This document shows positions 5,571-48,712 of a DNA stretch of 49,933 nucleotides, one piece after another. Every line of letters begins with the position of its first letter. Position 1 is the first letter of the stretch. Source of the DNA: Beroe ovata (Eukaryota > Ctenophora > Nuda > Beroida > Beroidae); contig CAMPET010000281.1 in assembly GCA_946803715.1 (NCBI GenBank), positions 23,755 to 73,687 on the forward strand, read 5' to 3'. Under the pieces are notes generated by a model that saw only the letters and a program-made list of their open reading frames with translations, searched no databases and was not told the origin of the DNA. Both the position numbers and the translations under genes were made by a program.

Positions 5571-6297
5571 GACTGACATCATGGACAGGTTCAGCATCAA
5601 TCATATAGTAAGCTACGCTCATCACACTAAATGACTCGAGCCAGTGAAAATGAGCAAGGATCAGCAACCCTCTGCTACCCGGCAACCCAGGTAAAGCAGG
5701 GCAGCCAGAACCTCCTATACCCCCAGGGTACGACCTGAGGTTCCTGCACCCTCTCCAGCGAGAACTGGTCTACCCAGAGCCCCCCTGGAAGGACACTATA
5801 TGATCAGTATGAGGGATCTCTGCCCAGCAGAGAGACCTTCAGCTCACCTGGGGACTTGTTTCCCATCCCGGTCATGCCCAGCTGTGCCCTAGTGTGGCTG
5901 TGTAGTAGTAGCATCGGGGCAATCTTGGCTATATTGACGATCGGATGATAGCCTGTGCATATGTTGGACCCCTCACCTCTATTCTAATCTGTAGAAAAGC
6001 TTAGCGGTCGGTAACTTGGGTCACTCACGCAATGTACATGGAAACATACTATCACCAGAAAGCATCTTTTCTATGTCAAGCTGCAAATCTATTATCCATG
6101 CCAATTTTTTGGACAATTGATGAATAATTCCTAAGCTAAGCATACTATCTCACTACACAGTATGGTTTCCATACTACAAATATCTTGGCTCTTTATACTA
6201 TGGTTCATGTAGAAGAGGATTCATAGAATTTCATTACATTAATTTCTATTCATTTCCTATTGGGGTACTTCTAATAGATGCATTTCATTGAACAGGT

Positions 6298-8043
6298 ATG
6301 GCTCAGGAAGGATTACATAAGTGGGTTTGCCCAACTGACAGAGAATTATGTTTGAGAGCCAAACTTAATAATGGCATGGGATGGAGTTACAAAAGTGTTC
6401 AATCTGGTGTTGTGCCATCAACCACTAGAGAAACTTTTGCAAAGCATGAAATGGAGAAAATAGAAGAGGTTATTAAGAAGCACAATCAGTTGGTAAAAGT
6501 AGAAGAAGAAAGAATAGGAAAACTGATGGAAAGATTTGATAACATGAAAAATAGTCAAGGCGATGGATATAAAACATGTCTATTTTGTAACACCAGTTTC
6601 GGTTTTTTGAAAGCAAAGCCATTTCGTTGTCATCTTTGTCAAAGAAATGTTTGTAGCAAATGTAAAGTAGAGACTGAGAAACGCCAGATTGTTTTACCAA
6701 AGATATTGTGCCGTGTGTGCAGTGAATATAGAGAGATTTGGAAGAAGTCAAATGCTTGGTTTTTCCATGCTATACCCAAATATGTGATCCCTCCAAAACT
6801 TCCTAAACAACCCATGAAAATACACAATTCTCCAATTCAGAAAAAGCCCCAGGAGAGACCAGTTAAAGGTCACAGTGACAGCTATTGGGATAATGACACC
6901 GATTATGCCAGCACAACTGATGATGATACAACAAGCGATGAGACAGATTCAGATGACACTGATAGTGAATCTGGAGAAAATGATAGTAACCCTGACAACT
7001 CAAAAGATGATGGTGGTGAATCAACGAGTGTTGAAATTCAATGCGAAGAGGATCAAGTTCTCGACATTATTGGATCTGATGATACCAACTTTATAGAAAA
7101 TGATGAGGAAATGGAGACAGGTGAACGTGGTGCTATCAAGTTCTCTCTACAGTATGACTCCATTGAGCAAATGTTGAATGTGAAGATTTTCTCAGGGCAC
7201 CGCCTTAAGTCAATGGATGTCAGTGGAACCAGTGATCCTTATGTCAAATGTATCCTTATTCCAGGTCACCAAAAGGCAACAAAGTTGAAGACATCTCGAA
7301 AAGAATGTGACCTAAACCCTGTTTTTAATGAGAAGCTCACATATCACGGTATATTTGAATCAGACATAAATTCTAAGATGGCCAGACTCACAGTGCTAGA
7401 TTATGACAGAATGACCACTAATGACATAATTGGTTATACCACTGTACCTTTGGCTGGGCTAGTTCCACAACAGCAGCATTACTACTGTGAAATTCTGAAG
7501 GAGCCAGAAGATGAAACTCATGAGGCATCAGCATTGGGTGACCGTGGTAGGATTCAGATATCACTGCACTATCAACCAAACAAAGAATTGAAAGTTTCCA
7601 TTGTGAGGTGTAGCATGTTAATGGTTCCTGGGTCTGACACTCTTCCTAATCCAATAGTCAAAGTGAATATCAAGCCATCACCAAAGAAAAACTTTTTCAA
7701 GAGAAAAACAGAAGTCTTGAAGAAAACTGCAAATCCTGAATTTGGGCCAAAAGCTAGGTTCACCTATGATATTAGTAATATCGACATTGAAAGTAGTGAC
7801 AGATGTTTGCAAGTAAGTGTTTGGGATTGCACAGGGTTAAAAAGGCTTAGTCATATTGGTGGCATTACCTTAGGGAAGGAATCAGGTGGGGCTGCTAAGT
7901 CTCATTGGTTAGATGCTTTATCATCTTGCGGACACCGAGTTACAAGGTGGCACATGCTCGATGGTGACTCCTTTGGAATGATAGGAGAAACATCCTCCAT
8001 TGATATGACTGATCAACTTTCAGTCCAACCTTCTACTCCGTGA
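6298..8043 (+). CDS. RPH3A: Rabphilin-3A-like Rab effector (RabBD zinc finger plus two C2 domains)
   Basis: A 581-residue protein in one uninterrupted exon. Residues 1-160 are a rabphilin-type Rab-binding domain: KWVCPTDRELCLRAKL, a helical region with EEERIGKLMERF, four CxxC pairs (C94/C97, C111/C114, C119/C122, C138/C141) of a FYVE-like zinc finger, and SNAWFF at 151-156, equivalent to the SGAWFF Rab3-contact motif. An Asp/Glu/Ser-rich linker spans about 190-265. C2A (about 279-400) keeps Ca-binding acidic loops (MDVSGTSDPYVK; DYDRMTTNDIIG). C2B (about 418-570) has lost them (PNPIVK; WDCTGLKR), so it probably binds no calcium. Known rabphilins bind GTP-Rab3/Rab27 on secretory vesicles and regulate exocytosis. 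An acceptor-like AACAG just before the ATG suggests a 5' UTR intron. Possible polyA signal AATAAA at 8360. Confidence 0.9.
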   Translation: MAQEGLHKWVCPTDRELCLRAKLNNGMGWSYKSVQSGVVPSTTRETFAKHEMEKIEEVIKKHNQLVKVEEERIGKLMERFDNMKNSQGDGYKTCLFCNTSFGFLKAKPFRCHLCQRNVCSKCKVETEKRQIVLPKILCRVCSEYREIWKKSNAWFFHAIPKYVIPPKLPKQPMKIHNSPIQKKPQERPVKGHSDSYWDNDTDYASTTDDDTTSDETDSDDTDSESGENDSNPDNSKDDGGESTSVEIQCEEDQVLDIIGSDDTNFIENDEEMETGERGAIKFSLQYDSIEQMLNVKIFSGHRLKSMDVSGTSDPYVKCILIPGHQKATKLKTSRKECDLNPVFNEKLTYHGIFESDINSKMARLTVLDYDRMTTNDIIGYTTVPLAGLVPQQQHYYCEILKEPEDETHEASALGDRGRIQISLHYQPNKELKVSIVRCSMLMVPGSDTLPNPIVKVNIKPSPKKNFFKRKTEVLKKTANPEFGPKARFTYDISNIDIESSDRCLQVSVWDCTGLKRLSHIGGITLGKESGGAAKSHWLDALSSCGHRVTRWHMLDGDSFGMIGETSSIDMTDQLSVQPSTP

Positions 8044-11851: not shown

Positions 11852-11873
11852 AAGTTCACTGCCATTTTAGAGA

Positions 11874-13088
11874 ATGAAACAGATGGGGGATGAGATAAAT
11901 AAACTTTGCAACGCACACTTCGCTAGTCTCCCTCAGAAGGGAAAACCCTCTTCATCCCAATGGACGGTTCTGTCTGCGGTTGTTATGGAAAAGCGAGGGG
12001 AACTATCAGTAATTTCCATGGCAACAGGGACGAAATGTGTTGGAGAGAGGGACAGGAGCATGTTTGTTGTTTCCGATAGTCACGCCGAAATCCTCTCTCT
12101 TCGACTCTTCAGACTGTACCTCCTACACCAGATGTTAGCGTTACATGATGATGGTATTTTGGAAGCAGGAGAGATGGGATTCTCAGTAAAATCTGGGGTC
12201 TTCTTCCACTTCTTCACATCATGCGTTATGTGTGGTGATGCTACAATTCACATTCCATCGAGCTGTGATATTGTTAGACAGCACAAGAGACCACCGTCCC
12301 CATGCGATGAATTCTCTCCGAAACAACTCAAAGCTTCTCCCTCCTCGAATGACCTATCCGTCCCTTCTACTCCTTCATCAACACTCTCAGTGGACATGAC
12401 TCGGAGTGGGGGCAAGTGTCTCATCTCTGACGATCTCTCGTCGGACTCTATCCAGACCAGAGCATGGCACTTGACCTCTGTGATCCGGACTAAGCCTGGC
12501 CGAGGACCCCTGTCTCTATCTCTGAGCTGCTCCGACAAACTGATGAAACGACACTGTCTCGGTTTGCAGGGAGGTCTTCTTTCTCCCCTAATCGAACAGC
12601 CAATCAGATTCCAATCGTTTGTAATCGGTGGTCCATTCTCGCATGAGAGTGTAACACGAGCTCATTTTACACGACTTCCCCCACATCTGCAGTATCCTGT
12701 GGATATCACTGGCGTGGAAGACATGTTCTCGAACAGTCTCGCTAACTGCCCACCCCCCTCCTCTCCTGCCAGCGTGTCCTTGCTGTGGTGTCGTGGTGTC
12801 GGGCAGTGGGCTGGTGTCAGGGGCAGACAGCAGGGAGCCACCAAATCGTCAGTCGAGGAGAAGGTCATGCTGCCTGTCTGTCGAGGTAATATGTTGAAAC
12901 TGACTGTAGACGTCACGAAAAGTGTAACCGTGGGCAGGGAGAGCGTGAAAGCAAATATGAGTTGTCAATATGAGGATATTAGGAACCTTTCACCGTTCTA
13001 CAAAGAGAAAAAATCTCAATTCTGTGCTTATTTTGATGGTTGGAAGAGGAAAGAGGAAAGGAAGGATAAAATTAGCCGTGTGTCATGA
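11874..13088 (+). CDS. ADAT1: ADAT1-like tRNA adenosine deaminase
   Basis: A single-exon gene of 404 residues with an adenosine-deaminase domain over most of its length. Catalytic elements: SDSHAEILSLRLFRLY (zinc-ligand His and proton-shuttling Glu), CVMCGDATI (second zinc ligand), and the RTKPGRGPLSLSLSCSDKL stretch (third ligand Cys), followed by GLQGGLLSPLIEQPI. Animal ADAT1 converts A37 to inosine in tRNA-Ala. The usual PCGDA motif reads MCGDA here, i.e. the conserved Pro is replaced by Met while all three zinc ligands and the Glu remain. A Ser/Pro-rich insert (about residues 135-185) separates the motifs. The protein is shorter than the human enzyme (about 500 aa). No double-stranded RNA-binding domain is seen, which argues against ADAR or ADAD. 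ATTTTAG before the ATG could be a 5' UTR acceptor. Confidence 0.85.
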   Translation: MKQMGDEINKLCNAHFASLPQKGKPSSSQWTVLSAVVMEKRGELSVISMATGTKCVGERDRSMFVVSDSHAEILSLRLFRLYLLHQMLALHDDGILEAGEMGFSVKSGVFFHFFTSCVMCGDATIHIPSSCDIVRQHKRPPSPCDEFSPKQLKASPSSNDLSVPSTPSSTLSVDMTRSGGKCLISDDLSSDSIQTRAWHLTSVIRTKPGRGPLSLSLSCSDKLMKRHCLGLQGGLLSPLIEQPIRFQSFVIGGPFSHESVTRAHFTRLPPHLQYPVDITGVEDMFSNSLANCPPPSSPASVSLLWCRGVGQWAGVRGRQQGATKSSVEEKVMLPVCRGNMLKLTVDVTKSVTVGRESVKANMSCQYEDIRNLSPFYKEKKSQFCAYFDGWKRKEERKDKISRVS

Positions 13089-17403: not shown

Positions 17404-19893
<2,490 letters not shown>

Positions 19894-37126: not shown

Positions 37127-38119
37127 CACAGTCATGATACTATAGGATATTGGCTAGCTTGTTAGTTTTGTGTACAGTTTTTAGTTTGCTGGGTTGAGAA
37201 TTTATGGATTGTTCGACACTTGAACAGTGCATGGATAGAAGTTATTAATTGTCTATGATTTGATCGGTTTCTTGTTTTGAGTCCAAGAAATACCGGAACT
37301 GATGAAATACGGCATTCAGTTCTTCAGACTATTTTATTCGATATTTCAATGGATTTATGCCCCTTATGCATGCATTTTACTTTATATCCTCTTATCTGAA
37401 TGCTAACGCTATCCTGAAGACTCACAATACACAAGACAAACATTTTCAACTAATGCTGATGTTCTCAATGTATACATATTTGCTAATTGCTAGATTAAAA
37501 CATCCACTTTATTCACGAAGTTCAACTCCAAGAACATGTGTTTTCATTGTCGATCCTATCTCTATCATCGCAAGTGCTTGATTTTGTGACACGAGCGAGA
37601 TGAGAAACCGTGATGAGACCGATCGGAAGATTGTGGAGACTTGTTCCCACGTTGGGTGACCCAATCGGTTCACAGACTAGAAAGGGGGCGCGCAGCGTGT
37701 GCACATGGAGGCTCAGAACAGTCATCACCGATGACATGACTGTGATCAATAGTAGCATGACTTATTCCACATATTGCTTGTCTGTGGTCACTCACAGTTC
37801 TTGCTATGGAAAATAAACACGAATGTTATGGTATGCCGGCGGTAATTTCGGCGGGATATAATGTTAAAAATTGAATTAATTGCTAAATTATCGTTATAAA
37901 TAGGTTAAACTTAAATATAAGCTCATCAGTCAAATATACAAAAAACTGGGTCAAATTTTTATTAAAAAGTCATTTGGTAGTATCTAAAAGTGTTTTCATG
38001 AATACCTACGGCAGCTTAACAAATTCAAGCGAAATTAATAAAATGTTAGATTTAGAACATTAATTGTGAGAACAAAATCTAAAAATGCATGACGTCACAA
38101 GTTTATTGGAAGGGAATGT
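37127..38119. other. convergent intergenic region, MANF/LSM11
   Basis: Holds 3' UTRs of two facing genes. AATAAA at 37813 (plus) and AT-rich sequence near 37860-38060 are compatible with polyadenylation. The GC-rich patch 37600-37740 is open in both orientations but resembles no family. Confidence 0.4.
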
Positions 38120-41100
38120 TCATTCGACAATCCTGACAAGAACTACATTGTCACCCCTGACAAAAACCTGCTTGCAATACCGTGTTATGATTCGGTTCCT
38201 TGTATACCTGAAATGAACAACTTTAATCTTGTCACACTGTAATATGTGTGCACTGTAATATGACGTACACACTGCTACATTCATCTCTGATTAATTCACA
38301 AATCAAAACGGCTGTCATGATAGTTTCAAAAAAATAGGGTTTTTTCCGAATTCTCAAACACGTTATTTGCATCAGAATATTTATCTGCAATGACGTCCCA
38401 AAGTAAACATTGTCAACTCACCTGAATTTCCTATATTCGGGAATGTGATATGCCCATCCTAAGAGACCCTGTGGTGGACTGTAAACATGTTTGCCTGCAG
38501 AATGGAAAAGAGATGAGAAACAAGGGCTGTGTTATCCAGTCAGGAGTACAATTAACGGAAGGAAAAACTCCAATAATCATAATGAACACTTACTCGGAGA
38601 TTCATCCACGGAGGGAGGCGGGGTGCATTGTGGTGATCGTATGTGGTGACCTGGAGACATCATGTCTGGGGGATCAGCTCTACTGGGACCAGCTCTACTG
38701 GGACCAGCTGGACTTGGAGTCGTGCCTGGACAAAACACGGGTTATGGGGGAGAGTAGTATCATTAATCTGTGGTGCATCACAAATTGAGATTAGGCAGTA
38801 ATTGAAGATGTTCAGATCCCATTTGAAACGTACCAGGTGGTGACATAGATGGTGATCTTATCCCTCTTATTAAACTAGGATCAAGATCAACAGTTCGCGA
38901 GAAATTCACGAAAACCCGATCATCCTGGGTGTCTGGCCTGAGCGTGTCTTCTGACTGATTGTGAGGTTTGTGGTAATTGCTCCTGTAGTTTTCCGTAACA
39001 TCGGATAACGCCTGCGCAGTGTGTATTGCTGTGAAAATCATGATTATCTCCACTTTCTTGAGAAAGTAGGAACTCGACGTCAAATATCTCAAATGCACTT
39101 CCGTCTTTTACTGTCTAGTATCTGGGTCACCACTGCCCAAAAATTTCTGACCAATGATCAATTCCAGTCAGCGACCGAAAAAATCGGAGATATTGATAAG
39201 AGAGCAATTCTCCACTCACTAGATTCATGTATCTATCGTAGGCGACAAGATAGCCTGTACACTCTCCTCTCACTCCCTTGAATGTGCGAGTAACGACAGT
39301 TATCTTCAAATTGGATGTAAGAGCACGCTGCAGTGTTTGGAGTGGTCCGGCATCTTTAGCTGCAACAGAAATAAAAACTAAACAGCAGCAGTCATGAATT
39401 ATTGGGGAAATCAACATTGCTGATATCATCAACTTGAACTATCCGGATCCCTAACTGCAGCTGTTGATTCAGCAATTAAATTAAAAAATCAAAGAATTCC
39501 AATTTGACGTCTCACTCACTGATCATAATGTCGAGAACTGTCTGCTTCCGGACTTTTTTATACTGACAATGAGCTTCATCGGCCCTCTTCAAACACTCCT
39601 CCCACACCACTGGGGCATTGAGTTTTGTACACGAGGTTCTCGTTGCTTGTTTGGCAGACTTTTTGATCAAGAGAGGGTTGTGAACTTTGCTGGATGCTGC
39701 GGATTGAACATCCACACGTGACTCTTCTGTAGACGTCTGCTGGGGAAACTTGGTTTCATGACAGAAGTCAGGCTTGGTGCTATCCCAAGTAGCGAGTTCC
39801 TGCGTGGGTGACGGAGTTGGAGTGGTCTCTTGAGTCGGAGGAGGAGGTCTTGAAGTATCCAAGAACTGTTCCCTTGGGATATCAGAAAACTTTAGCCTGC
39901 TCAAGTCACGTGGCATGTAATTCGGGTCCCTTATCTGAAGCCTTGTAGTTCTCAGTTCCTTTAGGGTAGCCTCATCAACTTTCCAACATTCTAACCACCG
40001 TGACAGAGACGATCTCCGTCTACCCTTTACATTGGGTAAGATGATTTGTCTCTCACTTGCAGCCAAAACAGCAAGAGCATCAAACAGACAATGCTTGAAG
40101 TCAAGTTGCACACTTTCTCGACACGATTCCTCGCCAAGCTCTTGCTCGACAGTCTTCTTCGGAGATGTTTGATTGGGTTTTTCCTCACTACTACACCTTG
40201 TACGACTCCGCTTGTTCTCCGGCTTTGAAGACGAACTTCTAGAAAGAACTTGACGCAAATCAAACATCTTGTCAGACTGTTGGTCAGGTGAATCGGTTTT
40301 CCTTCGTTTTCGTGTTACTGAAATAAGAGGTTCTGTTGTTTCCATACTTTTATCAATGACAATCGTTGATTCCTCAACGGGGGATGAGGGTTTTTCTTCT
40401 TGCTGCTCGGCAAAGTATTGCTCGAGCCTTTGCTCCTTTGCCTTCTTTTCTTCAGACAAAATGACGCCAAGTTGCTTCTTCTTACGTTGAGTGAACAGTG
40501 TTGAACCAATGGGAGCAGAAGAGCCACATGTTTCAGCCACAAATTCCTTAATCTTTGTCGGAGAAGTCATTGAGTCAGTAGATGACACGGCATTTCTAAG
40601 ACATAGACTTTTACTGACATCAGAATTTCTTATTGAAGAGCTGTTCATGGATTTATTTCTAGCTGGTTTCTTAGGTATCCTGAATTTAGGGGGCTTTGTA
40701 ACCCTATCACCCATCTCTTCCTTTGGGGCAGTAGGCTCTGTCCGCTTTGCAGTTGATTCGTCAGGCGATTCGTCGGTAAAAGTATCAGCTTCAGTAAGCA
40801 TGACATCCTTAGTAATGTACGTTTCAGTAGTGTTGCCGACTGCGTCAGTCATCGGAGCCTCTAAAACGTTATGTTCTGCGACAGGCTCTTCATCATTGGA
40901 ATTGGAAGGATCACTGAATAAATCATTATCATGAGATTGATTTTTCTTTGCTGATGCCTCATCTTCTATCACACATTGTGTCTCTGTGAGTATTTCGGTA
41001 GCTGCACTCTCTTGCGACGAGTTTGCTGGCAGTAAATCCTCATGAGGGACGCCAGTTGATGGAGATACTAGTTTGGATGTGTCTCGATCTCCTTCTAAAC

Positions 41101-44100
41101 TCATATTTTTCAGGGATTCAAAGCTTTTGTCGAGTGCTGACTGCTGTAAGAACTTGCCCACTGTCATGCTGTCAGACTCACAGTCATAACTTCCAACCAC
41201 CCCTGATTCAGACATAAATGAGTTTGTGACTCTCATAACTTTCGGGATAACAACTTTCCTGAAATATTCATGCGATTCATCATCATTCAGTGATGCATCT
41301 TCCATTCCCGAACGTATTTGATGTTCTATTGGACCTACAGTATTTGATATAGCAGGTAAATCAGATTGATCATTACTTCCACCTGATGATATGTCTGGTT
41401 TGACAAGATCGATACCACAAGGCTTCTTTTCAGAACATTTCTGTTCACTATCGGTGTTTGAGAATGAGACAGTGTTGTTGATGGTGCTTTTATTGATTGA
41501 AGTGCTGGGCAATGATGACGATGATGCTACTGCTGTGACATTGGTGCAAGATGAATCGCTTTTTGTATAGGAAGTTTTGTGAGCAGCAGCGGTCATCGGT
41601 GTCATCAGTGCAGCTGGGTTTACTGGTGTTGCAGGGGGTTGTACTGATTTATTGTTGGGAAATTCTTGTCTTGAAGTTTCTTGCTGTAATGGTGGTTCGA
41701 CTGATTCTAGACTTTTTACGCTTTCCACCGAAGATTGAGTTCTAGTTCGTGCATCTGATTCATTGAGGAATGGTTTTTCAACGTGAGTTGTGAAAATTTG
41801 GGCAACAGGTTGAGTATATTTTAGATCAATCCCGCCAATCAATTCGTTGATGAGCATATCCTGAATCATTTTCACACGCCTGCAGTATAAAAACTCTTTT
41901 GGAGGGATTGTGATTGGTATCAAAACGTGGTATTTTAATTTCGGTTCGAGTCCTTTCTTCAAATTACCCTGAGAGCTGGGGGTCGCAATGCTCTGCATCA
42001 TTTGGACGGGTGACCGAGGACCATCAACAGACTCCGGACGACTAACACTTTCGAATTCGACTGCTAATGGTGTACTGGTTGATTGGGAACTGGCCTTCTT
42101 CCTAGCAAACTCTGGTGTGCAGAAAGATGACTCAGGAAGAACTGAAGAAGATTTTTCATCCTTACGTAGCACGTAGTCATGTAGAGATATTCTTCGTTTA
42201 GCTCCAACATTGCTTGATACGGGCTCGGGCATCTCATCTTGTCTGGGTTCAGGAGTCCATGTTGACATTGATTCCTCACTTGCTAAGAGCATATTGACAT
42301 CTTGAATAGAGGGCGGAACTGATAGAGCAGTGGATTGGACTGATTGGAGATCAGCTGGAGGATCTGTTGATGAATCGGGATTCACCGTAGCTTGAGTACA
42401 ACTTAGAGATAGAGGAGTTTTTTCTACCACGGACATTTCTAGGGATTGATCAGGAGGAGTGAAAGCAGGCATCTGCTCCTCTGAATACAGACTTTGAATG
42501 AAACCAGACGGTGCAATACGAGGTGAAGGCCCAGTCTTCTCACTATTCGGCACAGAATCATGTTGTGTCGGCCCTTGACTTTGTTCAGCAAAAGGATGGT
42601 TCGAAAGAGCTTCATCACTCCTAAGCATGTCTCTGATAGCCTGGTCAGTGGCAGTCGACTTGCTCTCTTCAATACTCTTTTTATCACAATCAACTTGGGG
42701 AGCGATTCCTTCCTTGATGAAATTTGGAACAAGTTCCTCAGATCTTTGAAGTGCACTTGCTGGTATTTTGGAAATATTTGATTGCTTTTCGGGGTTCACA
42801 CAGTCTAACGGAAGTTTTTCCTCAGAAGATCTGAGATGTTGCGTTTCAACTTTATCACCAGGGTCAGTTTCTTTCACTTCAAGCTCAGCCAAAATTGGTT
42901 CCAGCTGAACAACTGCACAATCATTGTGGGTTTCGTGTGGAGGAGAGTCATTCAGGGGAATTTCTCCAGGAGCCGAGTCTGAGCGTTGGGGCGAAGCAGT
43001 TTTGGAACTGTTTTCTTCTTCTTCTTTCAGGGATGGGATTTCAACCACTTTAGTTTCAGAAATCCTTCGTTCTGCTGTAAGGAGAGACTCAAATTTAGCT
43101 TTATTCATGGTTAGAAACTGTTTATCCACCGAAAGCTCATCTCTATCATCATCTAGGCTTTTCTTTTCAGCTGATGAAGTTCCGGTTCCATTCATGGTGT
43201 CTTTTGAAAGGGCCGGAGTCACAGGATGATTAGCACTTGAAGTTGTGTGACTAGGAGCAAAACTCTGAATGCTGGAAACGCCATTTTCATGTTCATCGTC
43301 AGTTGAAAGAACTTCCCCATCATCGAGGAAATGTTCACTGTAACCAATCTTGACCTTTTCATTGCTTTCCAATGGAGAGGACGCAATTTCCTCGAAATCC
43401 AGTGTATCTTCGGTTGAAGCATCAATGAAGCTAGGAACATCTTTCATGCCCTTTGAAGGAGAATCGATCTGAACACCTTGGATATCCTGATTATCTTGAG
43501 TATCATCCTTTGCTGCCAAATGCGAAGGCTCTAAATCTTGAGGCTCATTTTCAAGCGTCTTCTCTTCATCTTTACTTTTCACTCGTGTAGTATCTGAACC
43601 AACAATCGTTTCAGCGCTTTCCAGATGACTTAGTAGTTTGGGAAGAATAGATTTCACTGATGAACTGGAAACTACTTCTAAAGACTTAGTCGTCTTCTTA
43701 CTCCTTGGAAATTCAAATTCTAGATCAAATGATCTGGAAAGGTCATTAGCAGCACTGTCCAAGGGGGATAATTTTATGGAATCTTCCTTAGATGACTTAT
43801 TTCCCTTCTCATCCGGCTTTGATTTCATGATGGAGTCCAGCGATGGTGCTAGGGGGACATCAAGTGGAGTATGAGATTCAACAGTTAGAGAATAGCACCC
43901 CGATTCTGTTGGGTCATAGGGACAGCTTTGTTCTGATAGTCGTGAACCTGGAGACCATCCCTCACTTACTCTATCACCAGAAACGGACTTCTTTTTCATT
44001 CTCCTAACCGATTTTGTCGGAGTCTTGAAAAGGTGGGAGTCATCTGCCTTCCCCTTCTTTGGTGTAGAGTCGGTCTCTGGAGTCTTTTCTGATTCATTTG

Positions 44101-47100
44101 TGATACTTGGCTTTGGGCCGACTTCTTTCTGCTGAGTCAAACAATCAGTTTTCGATTTATCCTCATTATGGGATACACGATTCTCAATACCGACAACCAC
44201 AACAGAATTTGGACTTTTAGACTTCGCAATCTTCGCATTCTTGAGAGAGAAAAATGGATAATCTGTTTTGACTTCTTCAAGACCTTTTGCCCAAGCAGGA
44301 TCAAGTGTTTTCCTCGAAAGAGTCTTCTTGTTACAGCTCATCTTTTCTTTTTGCGGAGTATTTTCTTTGCCCTCACTTTCACCTTCTTTCCAGTCCCGTC
44401 TCCCAGAAAACAACTTCTTGCCCATTTCCCTCGCAGTCACAGGCGATGGACTTTTACCAAAGTCGGCAGTGACATGATCGTCAATTTTTATTAGACTGAT
44501 CCGCCGAGAAGGCCGATCTCTTGGTCGTGAAACTTGCTTCAGAGGGCTCATCAAGAGACTTTTCTCGAATATTTTCTGAACTTCTGGATCTACTTGACTT
44601 GGATTGAATGCAGGTCGAACAGGGGTGGTGGGTTCTTGGGGTGACTGCTGTCGTTCTTGACAGTTTTCATTCTGACTTGACACTTCCTCAGGAGTGCTCG
44701 GCTCATCGGAAGAGTTCTTGATCGGTGAAATTGTTGACTGATTGCAAAACATCTTCCTGGCATTATCCCAATCTATGGACATCTGACTGAAGCAGCTAGA
44801 GAGTTCCTCATTGATATGTGGCTTGTAAAACTTTTCATCCCAATATTCATTTCTGTTCAAATCTATGGGGGACTGAACAGGGAGCTTGATACTTCTTTCC
44901 TCAGGCTCGACCGCTTTTTTGGCAAGTAATTCCTTAGTTTTGGCAATAAAATTGATGCTCGGTTCATTATCATCAGGTTTCTGATCTTTATCTACACCAA
45001 TGTCAAGCCACTCTTCGTCGGAAGATTCAGTTGCTTTGTCGACATCACCCTGCTTACCCTCGGATTCAGATTGTTTGTCTTGGTTGGATGATTTAGTAGC
45101 TTCCTCTGGTTGTTTTTCTGCTTGGTGAGTCGATGAGGATGAACTTTCCAGAACACCGGCGACAGTACTGTAAGACTCCTGAACTTCAGGGAGCTGAGAG
45201 TACTCAGGGGATTTCTCTTCAGTGCACGATATCTCGACTTCCATGACTGGTTCAATTCCAAGCCACTTCTGTTCATGGTCCAATTCCTCATTTATGTGGC
45301 AACAATTATCAACGATAGATTTTCCGTCTCCAGCCGAATTTTTCTCTACACTTGTTAGAGGAGAGGGATCTGATTTTCTGGTTACAGTGGACTCCGAGGA
45401 CTTATTCAATGGTTTCCGAGTGATCTTTCTTTTTCCTCGAGGTGGAAGTCTGGGCGGTACTGTGCTCAATCCTATCTCTTCGTTGAATGACTTTGAGTCA
45501 AAGTTCGCGTTTCGTTGTTTCTGCAAAGATTTTAATGATGAACAAACACACGAAGTTCAACACACGAAGTTTAACACACGAAGTGTAATTATTGCAGAAT
45601 TGAAAGGGGCGTGGCATATATCACGTGTATACAAAGTTGAATGAATCAAAAAATACCCACCTTTGTAAGCGTTTTGAAGGGGGATTTGAAAACCGTTACA
45701 AATTCGGAATTGGATCCAAAACACGAGTCGCAGTAGAATGTAGCAATGTTGAGGACTTGTTGCTCGGTAAGTCCGATACATTCATCATGAAACCTGGGGA
45801 GGAGAAAATCAGGAACCTCGCCATTGTCGAGCTAATTGAGTGCTAATTATATTAATTTGCTATTAATTTGCTTAATTTGCTATTAATTTGCTTAATATGG
45901 GCTCATTCAAAATTAAGGTGGTAACGCGAGACTGTGTCACTAACCATTCGGAACAGTTTTCACACTGAATCATCACTCCGTGTTCACCTCCTCTGCATAC
46001 ACAGAATGGACCCTCAACTCCGGTAGCGACTTTCGGTGACTTTTTGCTCGTTTTGTTCAAAACCTTGTTCTAAAAACATCAGATTTTATAAAATTAAGGA
46101 AAGTTAGGATCTAATTATTAAAGTTAGGAAAAAGCGTATCAGTCGTCATGTATAGATCGAAATTTCCATTACCTTTGGAGGAGTTGAGGTTTTCATCTTG
46201 GTGTTCGATCTCAAACTTCGTCGACCTGACTTTGATAAAACAGAGGATTTCTCAGGAGTGTTTTCTTTCTCCTCTATCGAACCATTTGTTGACATATCTG
46301 AAACTGATTTCGTAGCCTTCTTATTTCCCTGAGCTTTTACGACATCATTTCTTTCACTAGTTTTAGTCTCAGAGCTGCAAACAGTGGGAACAAGGACGAG
46401 TTCACAAGAGGAAACCGCCTCTGGACCATTCTTGATGATCCTAAAGTCTGATTTGAGCTCTAACTTCTGCTTTCGATTCGATTTCTTATCGGTTTGCTTT
46501 ACAGCTGAAACTTTTGTCTCAACAGATTGTTTAATTGTGGCGACAGGCTGGGATCGTATTGGAGTTTCCGTGGTAACAACTTGGGTTGATCCACGAGACA
46601 AAATACTTCGATCTGTTGTAGAATTTTTTTCATCTCGACGTGTCGTCGTTGCTGATTGATTCGGTGAGCTCCCAACATGGGGTTCTGATGCGAAGGGGGA
46701 GGAGCGAGGGGTGAGGGAGGAAATTGTGATGGTCTCTGTTCGATGATCGGAGCGGGAATTCTCTGAAAAACGAATCGTCAGATGTGGGAATTCTCTTCAG
46801 ATTTCAGTAAGTTCTCGAAATCAAACGTAAACAGTCTAACACACGCACCAATTACATCAACGGATATTCGGCACGGTTTCTCTACGATTGTCGAATGTTC
46901 GGTCGATGACAATAGTGTAACATTGCACGTGGTCACTGTGTTATTCGCAGTGTTGTTCGAGCCCACTTCCTCATCCGACTTCGACAATAGCGACTTGGAA
47001 GATTCTGGATAAAGTGATGTTACAATTTCAGTCTCAGAATAATACGATATTCCTTATTCCCGAAATTTGAGATAACATACCTGAATTTGTTGGCACAGTG

Positions 47101-47451
47101 GCACTGGCTAACGCTGTCGTAGGTTTGGCAGTTTGCCAAGGTGGTAAAGAGGGTTGGTTCTGTATAGATGTTGTCTGAGATGGTGGGTAGGGGGTTGAAG
47201 CTGTGTTGCCGTTTGTTTCGTTATCATCTTCTGTGTCCTGAAAAAGAACAGTTTAACGAGAAGTTATGAACTGTCGCTGCATTCAATGTGTAATTTGGCA
47301 ATCAAATTCCAGATATTCCCCCCAAGATAATCACCTCAGAATCAGACTGAGAAGACGCTGAGACACCGGAACTTGATGATTCCTCACTCTCATCTTCACT
47401 GCAACTTGAGTCACCACTTTCAGAACTGCTCGAGCGAGGAGTGACAACCAT
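38120..47451 (-). CDS. LSM11: PHD finger - large low-complexity region - LSM11 (U7 snRNP Sm protein) fusion
   Basis: Twelve minus-strand exons: 47451-47335, 47237-47081, 47004-46849, 46762-46173, 46069-45945, 45793-45661, 45520-39520, 39359-39220, 39011-38834, 38725-38594, 38494-38422, 38207-38120. Every junction keeps phase; total 7,890 nt, 2,629 residues. Residues 1-340 are Ser/Thr-rich. A canonical C4HC3 PHD finger spans 363-406 (FCVCRGG, MIQCENCSEWFHDECIGL, FYCDSC). About 2,000 mostly disordered residues follow in one 6-kb exon. This exon splices directly into an LSM11 Sm domain (KDAGPLQTLQRALTSNLKI; RTFKGVRGECTGYLVAYDRY; NLALSDVTENYR), and the C-terminus QVFVRGDNVVLVRIVE matches the end of animal LSM11 (QIFIRGENVLLVHLAQ). 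A stretch near 40046-40110 (LDFKHCLFDALAVLAA) weakly resembles the LSM11 N-terminal motif. LSM11 is a core of the U7 snRNP that cleaves histone pre-mRNAs. An internal promoter making a shorter LSM11 cannot be excluded. Confidence 0.85.
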
Positions 47452-47786: not shown

Positions 47787-48712
47787 TCAAACATTGGAAC
47801 GAAGGACTAACTCTTTTAAAATAGCGGATTGTATGTCTGTATCTGTTTGTATCAGGGTAAATTCATCACGCAGCTCCTTACTTTCGATTGGTTCATCTGA
47901 TATAACCTTGATCAATCGTTCTTTGCAGGGCCTTCCTGAAAATCGTGTTTTTGGTTTAGCATTCCTACGTCACAAGTATGCCGTGGTTTCAGCAGTTTGT
48001 GACGAATGGTTTTCCTATTCGTCACAGAGGCATGTTCTGACGTTCTGCTGTACAGTGTGAATATTCATTTTTTAATCCCTAAAACCAACAGTCAACACCT
48101 TTCTGGAAATCAAAATGGAGGTCAAAAAATGGAGATGAAACACTCACCATTTGAGTCTACATCAACTGATACAGTCTTGTTTAGCTTCACAAATTCCTTG
48201 ACACTCATTCCCTCAACAATGACTCTGATACTAGGACCTAAAACCAGCATGCAACTGCATTCGCATTGCTTTGCAAACTTTGCCAAACATCTCTGATACT
48301 TCTTCTGATTTCTGATGTGGTCCAAGGAATAGATGACCCGATTCAAAGTTTCAGCTGATTCTGGGAAAATTGATTCGTCTTCCTTTTCATCCACCTGTTC
48401 CAATTTCAACTGTAATTCAGCTATGTTCTGAGTAACGTACTCCAAGATGATAGACGGAGTCCAATCATTTAACTGAACTCCAGCCATACTTTCAGATATT
48501 TCCAGAACAGCTTTGTGCCACACAAGTTTTACTTCACTGATAATACCAAAAGCAGGAATGATGCTGATTTTTAGTAGCAATTCAGAATGAACTAGATCAG
48601 ACACGATTTCTGATAAAACGAACGTTAGCTTCCTTTTATTTCCGGAATTTTCGTCGAGCAGTTCTTTGTTGGCAATATACATCGATTGCAACATGTCAAT
48701 GTCTTCGTCCAT
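47787..48712 (-). CDS. RWDD3: RWDD3-like RWD domain protein
   Basis: Two exons, 48712-48148 and 47935-47787, join in phase for 237 residues. The N-terminal half is an RWD-type domain starting MDEDIDMLQSMY. The second half carries the family hallmark RVIYSLDHIRNQKKYQRCLA, CSCMLVLGPSIRVIVEGMSV and LNKTVSVDVDSNGRPCKERL, which lines up with human RWDD3 (LDHMRAKTKY ... TSKVDVDSSGKKCKEKM). Human RWDD3 (RSUME) binds the SUMO E2 UBC9 and raises sumoylation. The C-terminus ends about 30-40 residues earlier than in human. The PHD-LSM11 gene starts 335 bp downstream on the same strand. Confidence 0.82.

What the first reader, a model, noticed from the sequence alone, without database searches (positions are those of the whole stretch)
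38120..47451. PHD finger fused to the U7 snRNP protein LSM11 in one predicted 2,629-residue polypeptide
Seen: the 6-kb exon downstream of a canonical PHD finger splices, in phase, into the LSM11 Sm domain, with no stop or independent start exon between; the last exon ends like animal LSM11. Known: LSM11 is normally a protein of a few hundred residues that recruits FLASH and the histone pre-mRNA cleavage complex; PHD fingers often read histone H3 tails. Inference: a direct chromatin tether for histone mRNA 3' processing. I know of no described PHD-LSM11 fusion.
Basis: partly seen in the sequence, partly recalled or inferred. Interest (0 to 1): 0.88.

Follow-up and report, generated by a model that had tools for sequence, protein, structure and literature searches.

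The report
Giant comb-jelly LSM11 with PHD finger
In what is probably a comb jelly, a core protein of the machine that trims histone messages is built as one 2,629-residue chain with a long flexible-looking tail and a chromatin-reader-type finger, an arrangement shared with at least one other comb jelly.

Summary
Twelve minus-strand exons (47451..38120) with GT-AG introns join in phase into 2,629 residues with one stop. The N-terminal part carries a PHD finger, closest among solved structures to CXXC1. The C-terminus matches human LSM11 across both Sm halves. LSM11-like sequence starts before the Sm exon, inside the 6-kb exon and in frame (weak). A Bolinopsis microptera NCBI protein of 2,523 aa carries both domains. 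Seven relatives without species names share the long frame; one reads on into Sm sequence. No other LSM11 match appeared in the genome. LSM10, SLBP and stem-loop histone genes are present; no U7 snRNA was recognised. No conserved methionine precedes the LSM11 part closely, which argues against a conserved short form. Correction: two relatives whose frames reach a Ser-rich N-terminus show no PHD, so the giant extension looks wider spread than the PHD. The chromatin-tether reading is plausible but untested. New variant of a known kind.

The parts
38120..47451 (-). whole gene, 12 coding exons, 2,629 residues
   Evidence: GT-AG introns, phases match, single terminal stop; the Ser/acidic start resembles that of Bolinopsis P0001
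46173..47451 (-). exons 1-4: Ser-rich N-terminus (aa 1-340)
   Evidence: poorly conserved
45721..46006 (-). PHD finger, aa 362-406, on exons 5 and 6 (46069-45945 and 45793-45661), a phase 0-0 exon pair with a phase-2 intron inside
   Evidence: PF00628 E 6.5e-9; CXXC1 PHD (9c0o) E 9.9e-14; eight zinc ligands readable in the sequence
39520..45520 (-). exon 7, 6,001 nt: long extension with conserved blocks, ending in LSM11 N-terminal sequence
   Evidence: homologous in 8 of 8 relatives found; two AlphaFold2 jobs on parts of it (aa 557-1010 and 1490-2330) have 308 of 454 and 637 of 841 residues below pLDDT 50
44717..44728 (-). S-P-x-K site aa 691-694, kept in 8 of 8 relatives
44537..44548 (-). S-P-x-K site aa 751-754, kept in 8 of 8 relatives
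40397..40498 (-). conserved charged helix aa 2101-2134 (predicted)
   Evidence: model residues 612-645, block pLDDT 84, 93, 91, then 62
39998..40120 (-). region like the N-terminus of vertebrate LSM11 (FLASH-binding part), aa 2227-2267
   Evidence: hhalign 28.7-28.9 in three overlapping windows (probability 33-34%), next best other window 15.4, of 90; other settings gave 27.1 and 17%
39929..40006 (-). predicted helix aa 2265-2290, in the order expected for the LSM11 helix that touches CPSF73
   Evidence: model residues 776-801, block pLDDT 70-89; order as in PMC12774660 (passages); homology of the helix not shown
39520..39556 (-). pre-Sm motif aa 2415-2426 (KVRKQTVLDIM..), aligned to human LSM11 just before its Sm domain
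   Evidence: in 6 of the 7 relatives other than P0001 the frame ends within 14 residues after this motif, P0006 reads on into Sm sequence
39220..39359 (-). exon 8: first half of the Sm domain
38834..39011 (-). exon 9: end of the Sm1 region and linker
38120..38182 (-). second Sm half at the very C-terminus, aa 2610-2629, plus stop
38102..38107 (-). AATAAA just after the stop
   Evidence: weak evidence alone, as AATAAA/ATTAAA also occurs six times in exon 7 and once each in exon 4, intron 6 and intron 11

Best explanation
The locus encodes the only LSM11 found in this genome, made as one giant polypeptide. SHOWN by sequence: an LSM11 (N-terminal FLASH-binding-like region, pre-Sm motif, split Sm domain ending in the C-terminal Sm2) sits in frame behind about 2,200 residues of low-complexity, CDK-site-rich sequence with, in this species and in Bolinopsis, a CXXC1-like PHD finger. 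INFERRED: the C-terminal part takes the SmD2 place in the U7 Sm ring beside LSM10 and recruits the cleavage factors for histone pre-mRNA 3' ends; the extension works in cis as a scaffold that concentrates U7 snRNP at histone genes and is tuned by S-phase kinases; the PHD finger, where present, binds the H3 tail (probably H3K4-methylated) and so anchors the ring to active histone chromatin.
For: Gene structure and frame. LSM11 identity, both Sm halves. LSM11 N-terminal region in the same exon and frame as the extension, with a 90-window control. Same PHD plus LSM protein in Bolinopsis microptera. Long frame with an LSM11-like end in 8 of 8 relatives found; P0006 reads through a short stretch into its own Sm1 sequence, an independent linkage. 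No other LSM11 match at E <= 10. Partners: LSM10, best PDB hit 6v4x_C E 4.9e-18, best SmD1 1.2e-6; SLBP E 4.9e-24; histone genes in 12 of the 12 stem-loop loci held, of 33 hits. S/T-P-x-K/R sites in aa 1-2220: 14 against 4.6 +- 2.1 in shuffles, 0 of 1000 reach it. No conserved internal Met near the LSM11 part.
Against: No RNA or protein data. No PHD in P0005 and P0006. One aromatic present in the Bolinopsis PHD is His in the window. U7 snRNA not found: best RF00066 hit 19.9 bits, E 2; 18 pattern hits against 25 for the reversed control pattern, none convincing. None of the 33 stem-loop hits passes the Rfam cut-off, and 9 of 14 prokaryote controls also give weak ones. The FLASH-like match has low hhalign probability: 33-34%, 17%. 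CDK-site shuffles ignore local composition; cyclin-docking [KR]xL is not enriched (21 against 16.3; 127 of 1000 shuffles reach it).
Confidence: 0.6

Rival explanations
1. Two products from one locus: the long PHD form is real, but the working U7 subunit is a short LSM11 from an internal promoter or by cleavage of the long chain.
For: Vertebrate LSM11 is a few hundred residues (listed rows 201-503 aa, some partial); the Bolinopsis record is named 'isoform X2', so another isoform is annotated there.
Against: In 9 of 9 proteins the nearest Met is 61 to 317 residues before the FDALAVL-type anchor (aa 2239), and no alignment column from aa 1863 to 2239 has Met in 5 or more of 9 (alignment of low-complexity sequence is unsure). 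No polypyrimidine-CAG acceptor in the last 1.5 kb of exon 7 by a simple pattern. Cleavage is not excluded.
Confidence: 0.22
2. The extension and PHD have a separate nuclear task (for example SET1/COMPASS-like or transcriptional), and fusion to LSM11 is a passive link.
For: The PHD is closest to CXXC1 among solved structures; a similar PHD sits in another gene on contig C5 with the same intron position.
Against: 8 of 8 relatives carry the LSM11-like end of the long exon, and no unfused homologue of the extension was found among 5,941 length-matched candidates; Sm sequence itself was seen only in P0001 and, in part, P0006.
Confidence: 0.13
3. Gene-model artefact: two neighbouring genes joined by chance splice sites.
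For: No RNA was available here.
Against: LSM11-like N-terminal sequence lies inside the long exon itself, the architecture recurs in Bolinopsis, and the end of the long frame is shared.
Confidence: 0.03

Closest known systems
LSM11 (U7 snRNA-associated Sm-like protein) of vertebrates
   Same: split Sm domain with C-terminal Sm2, pre-Sm motif, N-terminal region in the same order
   Different: about 2,200 extra N-terminal residues, CDK-type sites, PHD finger; vertebrate rows listed are 201-503 aa
Bolinopsis microptera uncharacterized protein LOC134819996 isoform X2 (P0001, 2,523 aa)
   Same: PHD and LSM in one chain, 47% identity over aa 2190-2629
   Different: record is uncharacterised; has Tyr where the window PHD has His
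PHD finger of CXXC1/CFP1 (9c0o)
   Same: zinc ligands, Met and Trp of the pocket, tail after the last Cys; 23 of 57 aligned residues
   Different: first aromatic is Phe, not Tyr; no CXXC finger recognised in the window, by a motif that also found none elsewhere
FLASH and NPAT (histone locus scaffolds)
   Same: works-like comparison only, from general knowledge: large scaffold tied to LSM11 and histone genes
   Different: no sequence relation shown; an NPAT_C profile search gave nothing, but its controls gave nothing either; FLASH was not searched

Membership tests
LSM11 | LSM11-type Sm1 block | tested here: met
   E 1.6e-17; the isolated exon is below the general Pfam LSM cut-off
LSM11 | split Sm domain, Sm2 at the extreme C-terminus | tested here: met
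   alignment, query 391-406 to human 345-359
LSM11 | N-terminal region that binds FLASH in vertebrates | tested here: met
   sequence only and weak: hhalign 28.7-28.9 against at most 15.4 outside LSM11-like parts, probability 33-34%, 17% under other settings; P0005 carries the precomputed accession PF28412.1 that many listed vertebrate LSM11 rows carry, though the Pfam copy here did not report it for P0005 or a gibbon LSM11; binding not tested
LSM11 | helix contacting CPSF73 | tested here: inconclusive
   a fairly confident helix stands in the right order; no homology test for it
LSM11 | U7 pathway partners in the genome: LSM10, SLBP, histone stem-loops | tested here: met
   stem-loop hits are below the Rfam cut-off and accepted because they lie beside histone genes
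LSM11 | U7 snRNA | tested here: inconclusive
   nothing convincing
PHD finger | C4HC3 zinc ligands | tested here: met
PHD finger, H3K4me3-reading class | aromatic cage | tested here: inconclusive
   Phe, Met and Trp present, His where Bolinopsis has Tyr; cage positions are recalled, binding not tested
CXXC1 | CXXC zinc finger | tested here: inconclusive
   no match to a simple CXXC motif in six frames of the window, but the motif matched nothing in the two other regions scanned either, so it had no positive control

The most novel reading that the evidence does not exclude
Ctenophores built histone-locus scaffolding into the U7 snRNP core itself: a giant LSM11 carries in cis the scaffold and kinase-control functions that other animals place in FLASH and NPAT, and one sublineage added a PHD finger that ties the cleavage machine directly to methylated H3 at histone genes.
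Probability: 0.25. Interest if true: 0.85.

Novelty: new variant of a known kind. Interest (0 to 1): 0.64.

Why it matters
LSM11 is the subunit that makes U7 snRNP a histone-specific nuclease. A version joined in one chain to a chromatin-reader-type module and a huge kinase-site-rich tail, shared by diverged relatives, would give a natural test of how histone mRNA 3' processing is coupled to chromatin and to S phase, and a case of snRNP architecture differing deeply within animals.

Tried and rejected
U7 snRNA: Rfam RF00066 on the whole genome and on its four loci, and a pattern with an HDE-complement word and a U7-type Sm site (18 hits; reversed control 25), folded downstream: four hits are one repeated sequence; none convincing. 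NPAT_C profile: nothing, but the controls gave nothing either, so no absence is claimed. Hidden domain in the extension: Pfam 0 families in exon 7; AlphaFold2 on two parts with 9-row alignments gave mean pLDDT 42.7 and 45.6, so no fold search was run. A fused LSM11 outside ctenophores: one search scored 3,416 length-matched candidates and found 4 at E <= 1, all this family; it reaches only relatives sharing short words, so absence elsewhere is not shown. One search scored the 7,996 candidates sharing most words and listed 120 of 495 hits; rows with a species name are vertebrates, so LSM11 size in sponges, cnidarians and placozoans was not seen. Chance splicing: rejected. Internal start: disfavoured. 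The nine-protein tree is unrooted, with two long branches flagged and one weak inner fork; only the supported five-member group is used, and if the true root lay inside it the PHD history would read differently. A first strict stem-loop expression matched 1 of 16 printed histone 3' flanks; expressions widened after seeing the rows match 15 of 16, the other being only 23 nt long. The search for the window PHD in the genome gave 21 matches, of which 12 had loci. Papers: two were opened, passages only; the rest are listings.

Full report
OBSERVATION. The minus strand from 47451 to 38120 holds 12 coding exons with GT..AG introns whose phases match, giving 2,629 residues and one stop at the end. 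The 6,001-nt exon 7 is open in one frame only; the other five frames hold 60 to 200 stops, and the chance of 2,000 open codons at this composition is about 10^-52. The PHD is PF00628 at E 6.5e-9, with the CXXC1 PHD as nearest solved relative (E 9.9e-14). The C-terminal 407 residues match human LSM11 at E 1.6e-17, including the distant second Sm half at the very end. The general Pfam LSM profile is weaker: the Sm1 exon alone scores below its cut-off, and a whole-genome scan with it gave 16 matches, none of them this gene.

WHERE LSM11 BEGINS. An alignment of nine related proteins was cut into 90 windows and compared with an alignment of 12 vertebrate LSM11 N-termini (12 rows chosen from the 120 listed). 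The five best windows are the Sm region; the next three, scores 28.7-28.9, are the same stretch, aa about 2227-2267, aligned to residues 18-59 of the gibbon row P0010; the best other window scores 15.4. The probability given is only 33-34%, and 17% under other settings. Human Lsm11 residues 23-130 were the construct that forms a complex with FLASH (PMC5636114, passages seen). A fairly confident predicted helix follows (aa 2265-2290), in the order of the human 107-118 helix that contacts CPSF73 (PMC12774660, passages seen); that equivalence is a guess. So LSM11-like N-terminal sequence is in the same exon and frame as the extension.

RELATIVES. A search among proteins of similar length found a Bolinopsis microptera NCBI protein of 2,523 aa with both PHD and LSM domains. 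A second search, with aa 340-1000, gave 8 hits of 5,941 candidates, all one family. Seven have no species name; the EukProt identifier of P0008 suggests Pleurobrachia (recalled). Of the seven other than P0001, six have frames that end within 14 residues after the motif where the window splices; P0006 instead reads through a short stretch into its own Sm1 sequence, a second linkage. P0005 carries the precomputed accession PF28412.1 that many listed vertebrate LSM11 rows carry; the Pfam copy used here did not report that family for P0005 or for a gibbon LSM11. The window's genome (77.8 Mb, 534 contigs) is taken to be a ctenophore's; that rests on one named relative and is an inference.

THE PHD MAY NOT BE UNIVERSAL. 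P0005 and P0006 have frames that reach a Ser-rich N-terminus like the window's and show no PHD, though exons not in these frames could carry one. P0002, P0003, P0004, P0007 and P0008 begin inside the long exon's region, so they cannot tell. In the unrooted tree the window with P0002, and Bolinopsis with P0003 and P0004, form one supported group, with P0005-P0008 on the other side; gain of the PHD in that group, or loss outside it, are both open. The PHD exons form a phase 0-0 pair with a phase-2 intron inside. A PHD gene on contig C5, in two near-identical copies, shares that inner intron position and phase by my reading of the DNA, and 33 of 59 residues; Bolinopsis shares 29 of 57, human CXXC1 23 of 57 with the window. 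Duplication of a PHD exon pair is a simple origin, not proven.

ONE PRODUCT OR TWO. In 9 of 9 proteins the nearest upstream Met lies 61 to 317 residues before the FDALAVL-type anchor (aa 2239 here), and no alignment column from aa 1863 to 2239 has Met in five or more of nine. That speaks against a conserved AUG-started short LSM11 from within exon 7, but not against cleavage or non-conserved starts. A search of the genome with the LSM11 part gave five matches at E <= 10, all exons of this gene.

PATHWAY. LSM10 is present (contig C222; PDB best hit U7 LSm10 at 4.9e-18), SLBP too (E 4.9e-24). Histone stem-loop hits number 33, none above the Rfam cut-off, and weak hits also occur in 9 of 14 prokaryote controls; but 12 of the 12 loci held contain core histone genes, and 15 of 16 histone 3' flanks show a stem-loop after the stop, one flank being too short to judge; ATCTT, part of an HDE-like purine-rich stretch, follows within 40 nt in 9 of those 15. 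U7 snRNA itself was not found.

MECHANISM. The two parts of the extension that were modelled are mostly below pLDDT 50 (308 of 454 and 637 of 841 residues). Residues 1-2220 have 14 S/T-P-x-K/R sites against 4.6 expected, two of them kept in 8 of 8 relatives; cyclin-docking [KR]xL motifs are not enriched. My best reading is a U7 core subunit with a built-in, kinase-regulated scaffold and, in this lineage, a histone-tail reader. The Sm ring and cleavage role follow from LSM11 homology; scaffold and tether are inference. Of the pocket residues (recalled), Phe, Met and Trp are present; one position is His here and Tyr in Bolinopsis.

NOVELTY. Library searches found no paper with LSM11 + 'PHD finger' + fusion, ctenophore + histone + 'U7 snRNA' or ctenophore + LSM11; LSM11 + PHD as whole words gave 18 papers, none about such a protein by the listing; ctenophor + 'stem-loop binding protein' gave one paper, on trypanosomes. 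Only open-licence papers are held. I call it a new variant of a known kind.

Noticed in passing
G000 contig C5, about 359600-360000 and 362800-363200: Two near-identical copies of a gene with a PHD finger like the window's (33 of 59 residues) and the same intron position; could be tandem copies or an assembly duplicate.
   Followed up: partly
G000 contigs C2, C59, C65, C66 (stem-loop hits also on C193): Histone genes with 3' stem-loops, 9 of 15 followed by an ATCTT-bearing purine-rich stretch, while no U7 snRNA gene was recognised.
   Followed up: partly
window 6292-8043 +: Single-exon frame with a FYVE_2 zinc finger and two C2 stretches, rabphilin/synaptotagmin-like (recalled).
   Followed up: no
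window 11871-13088 +: Frame with an adenosine-deaminase editase domain, E 3.7e-45.
   Followed up: no
window 19299-19733 +: Frame matching the C-terminal part of papain-family cysteine proteases (Peptidase_C1, E 3.2e-17); earlier exons may lie from about 17993.
   Followed up: no
window 47787-48712 -: Small two-exon gene directly upstream on the same strand; no Pfam match above a cut-off.
   Followed up: no
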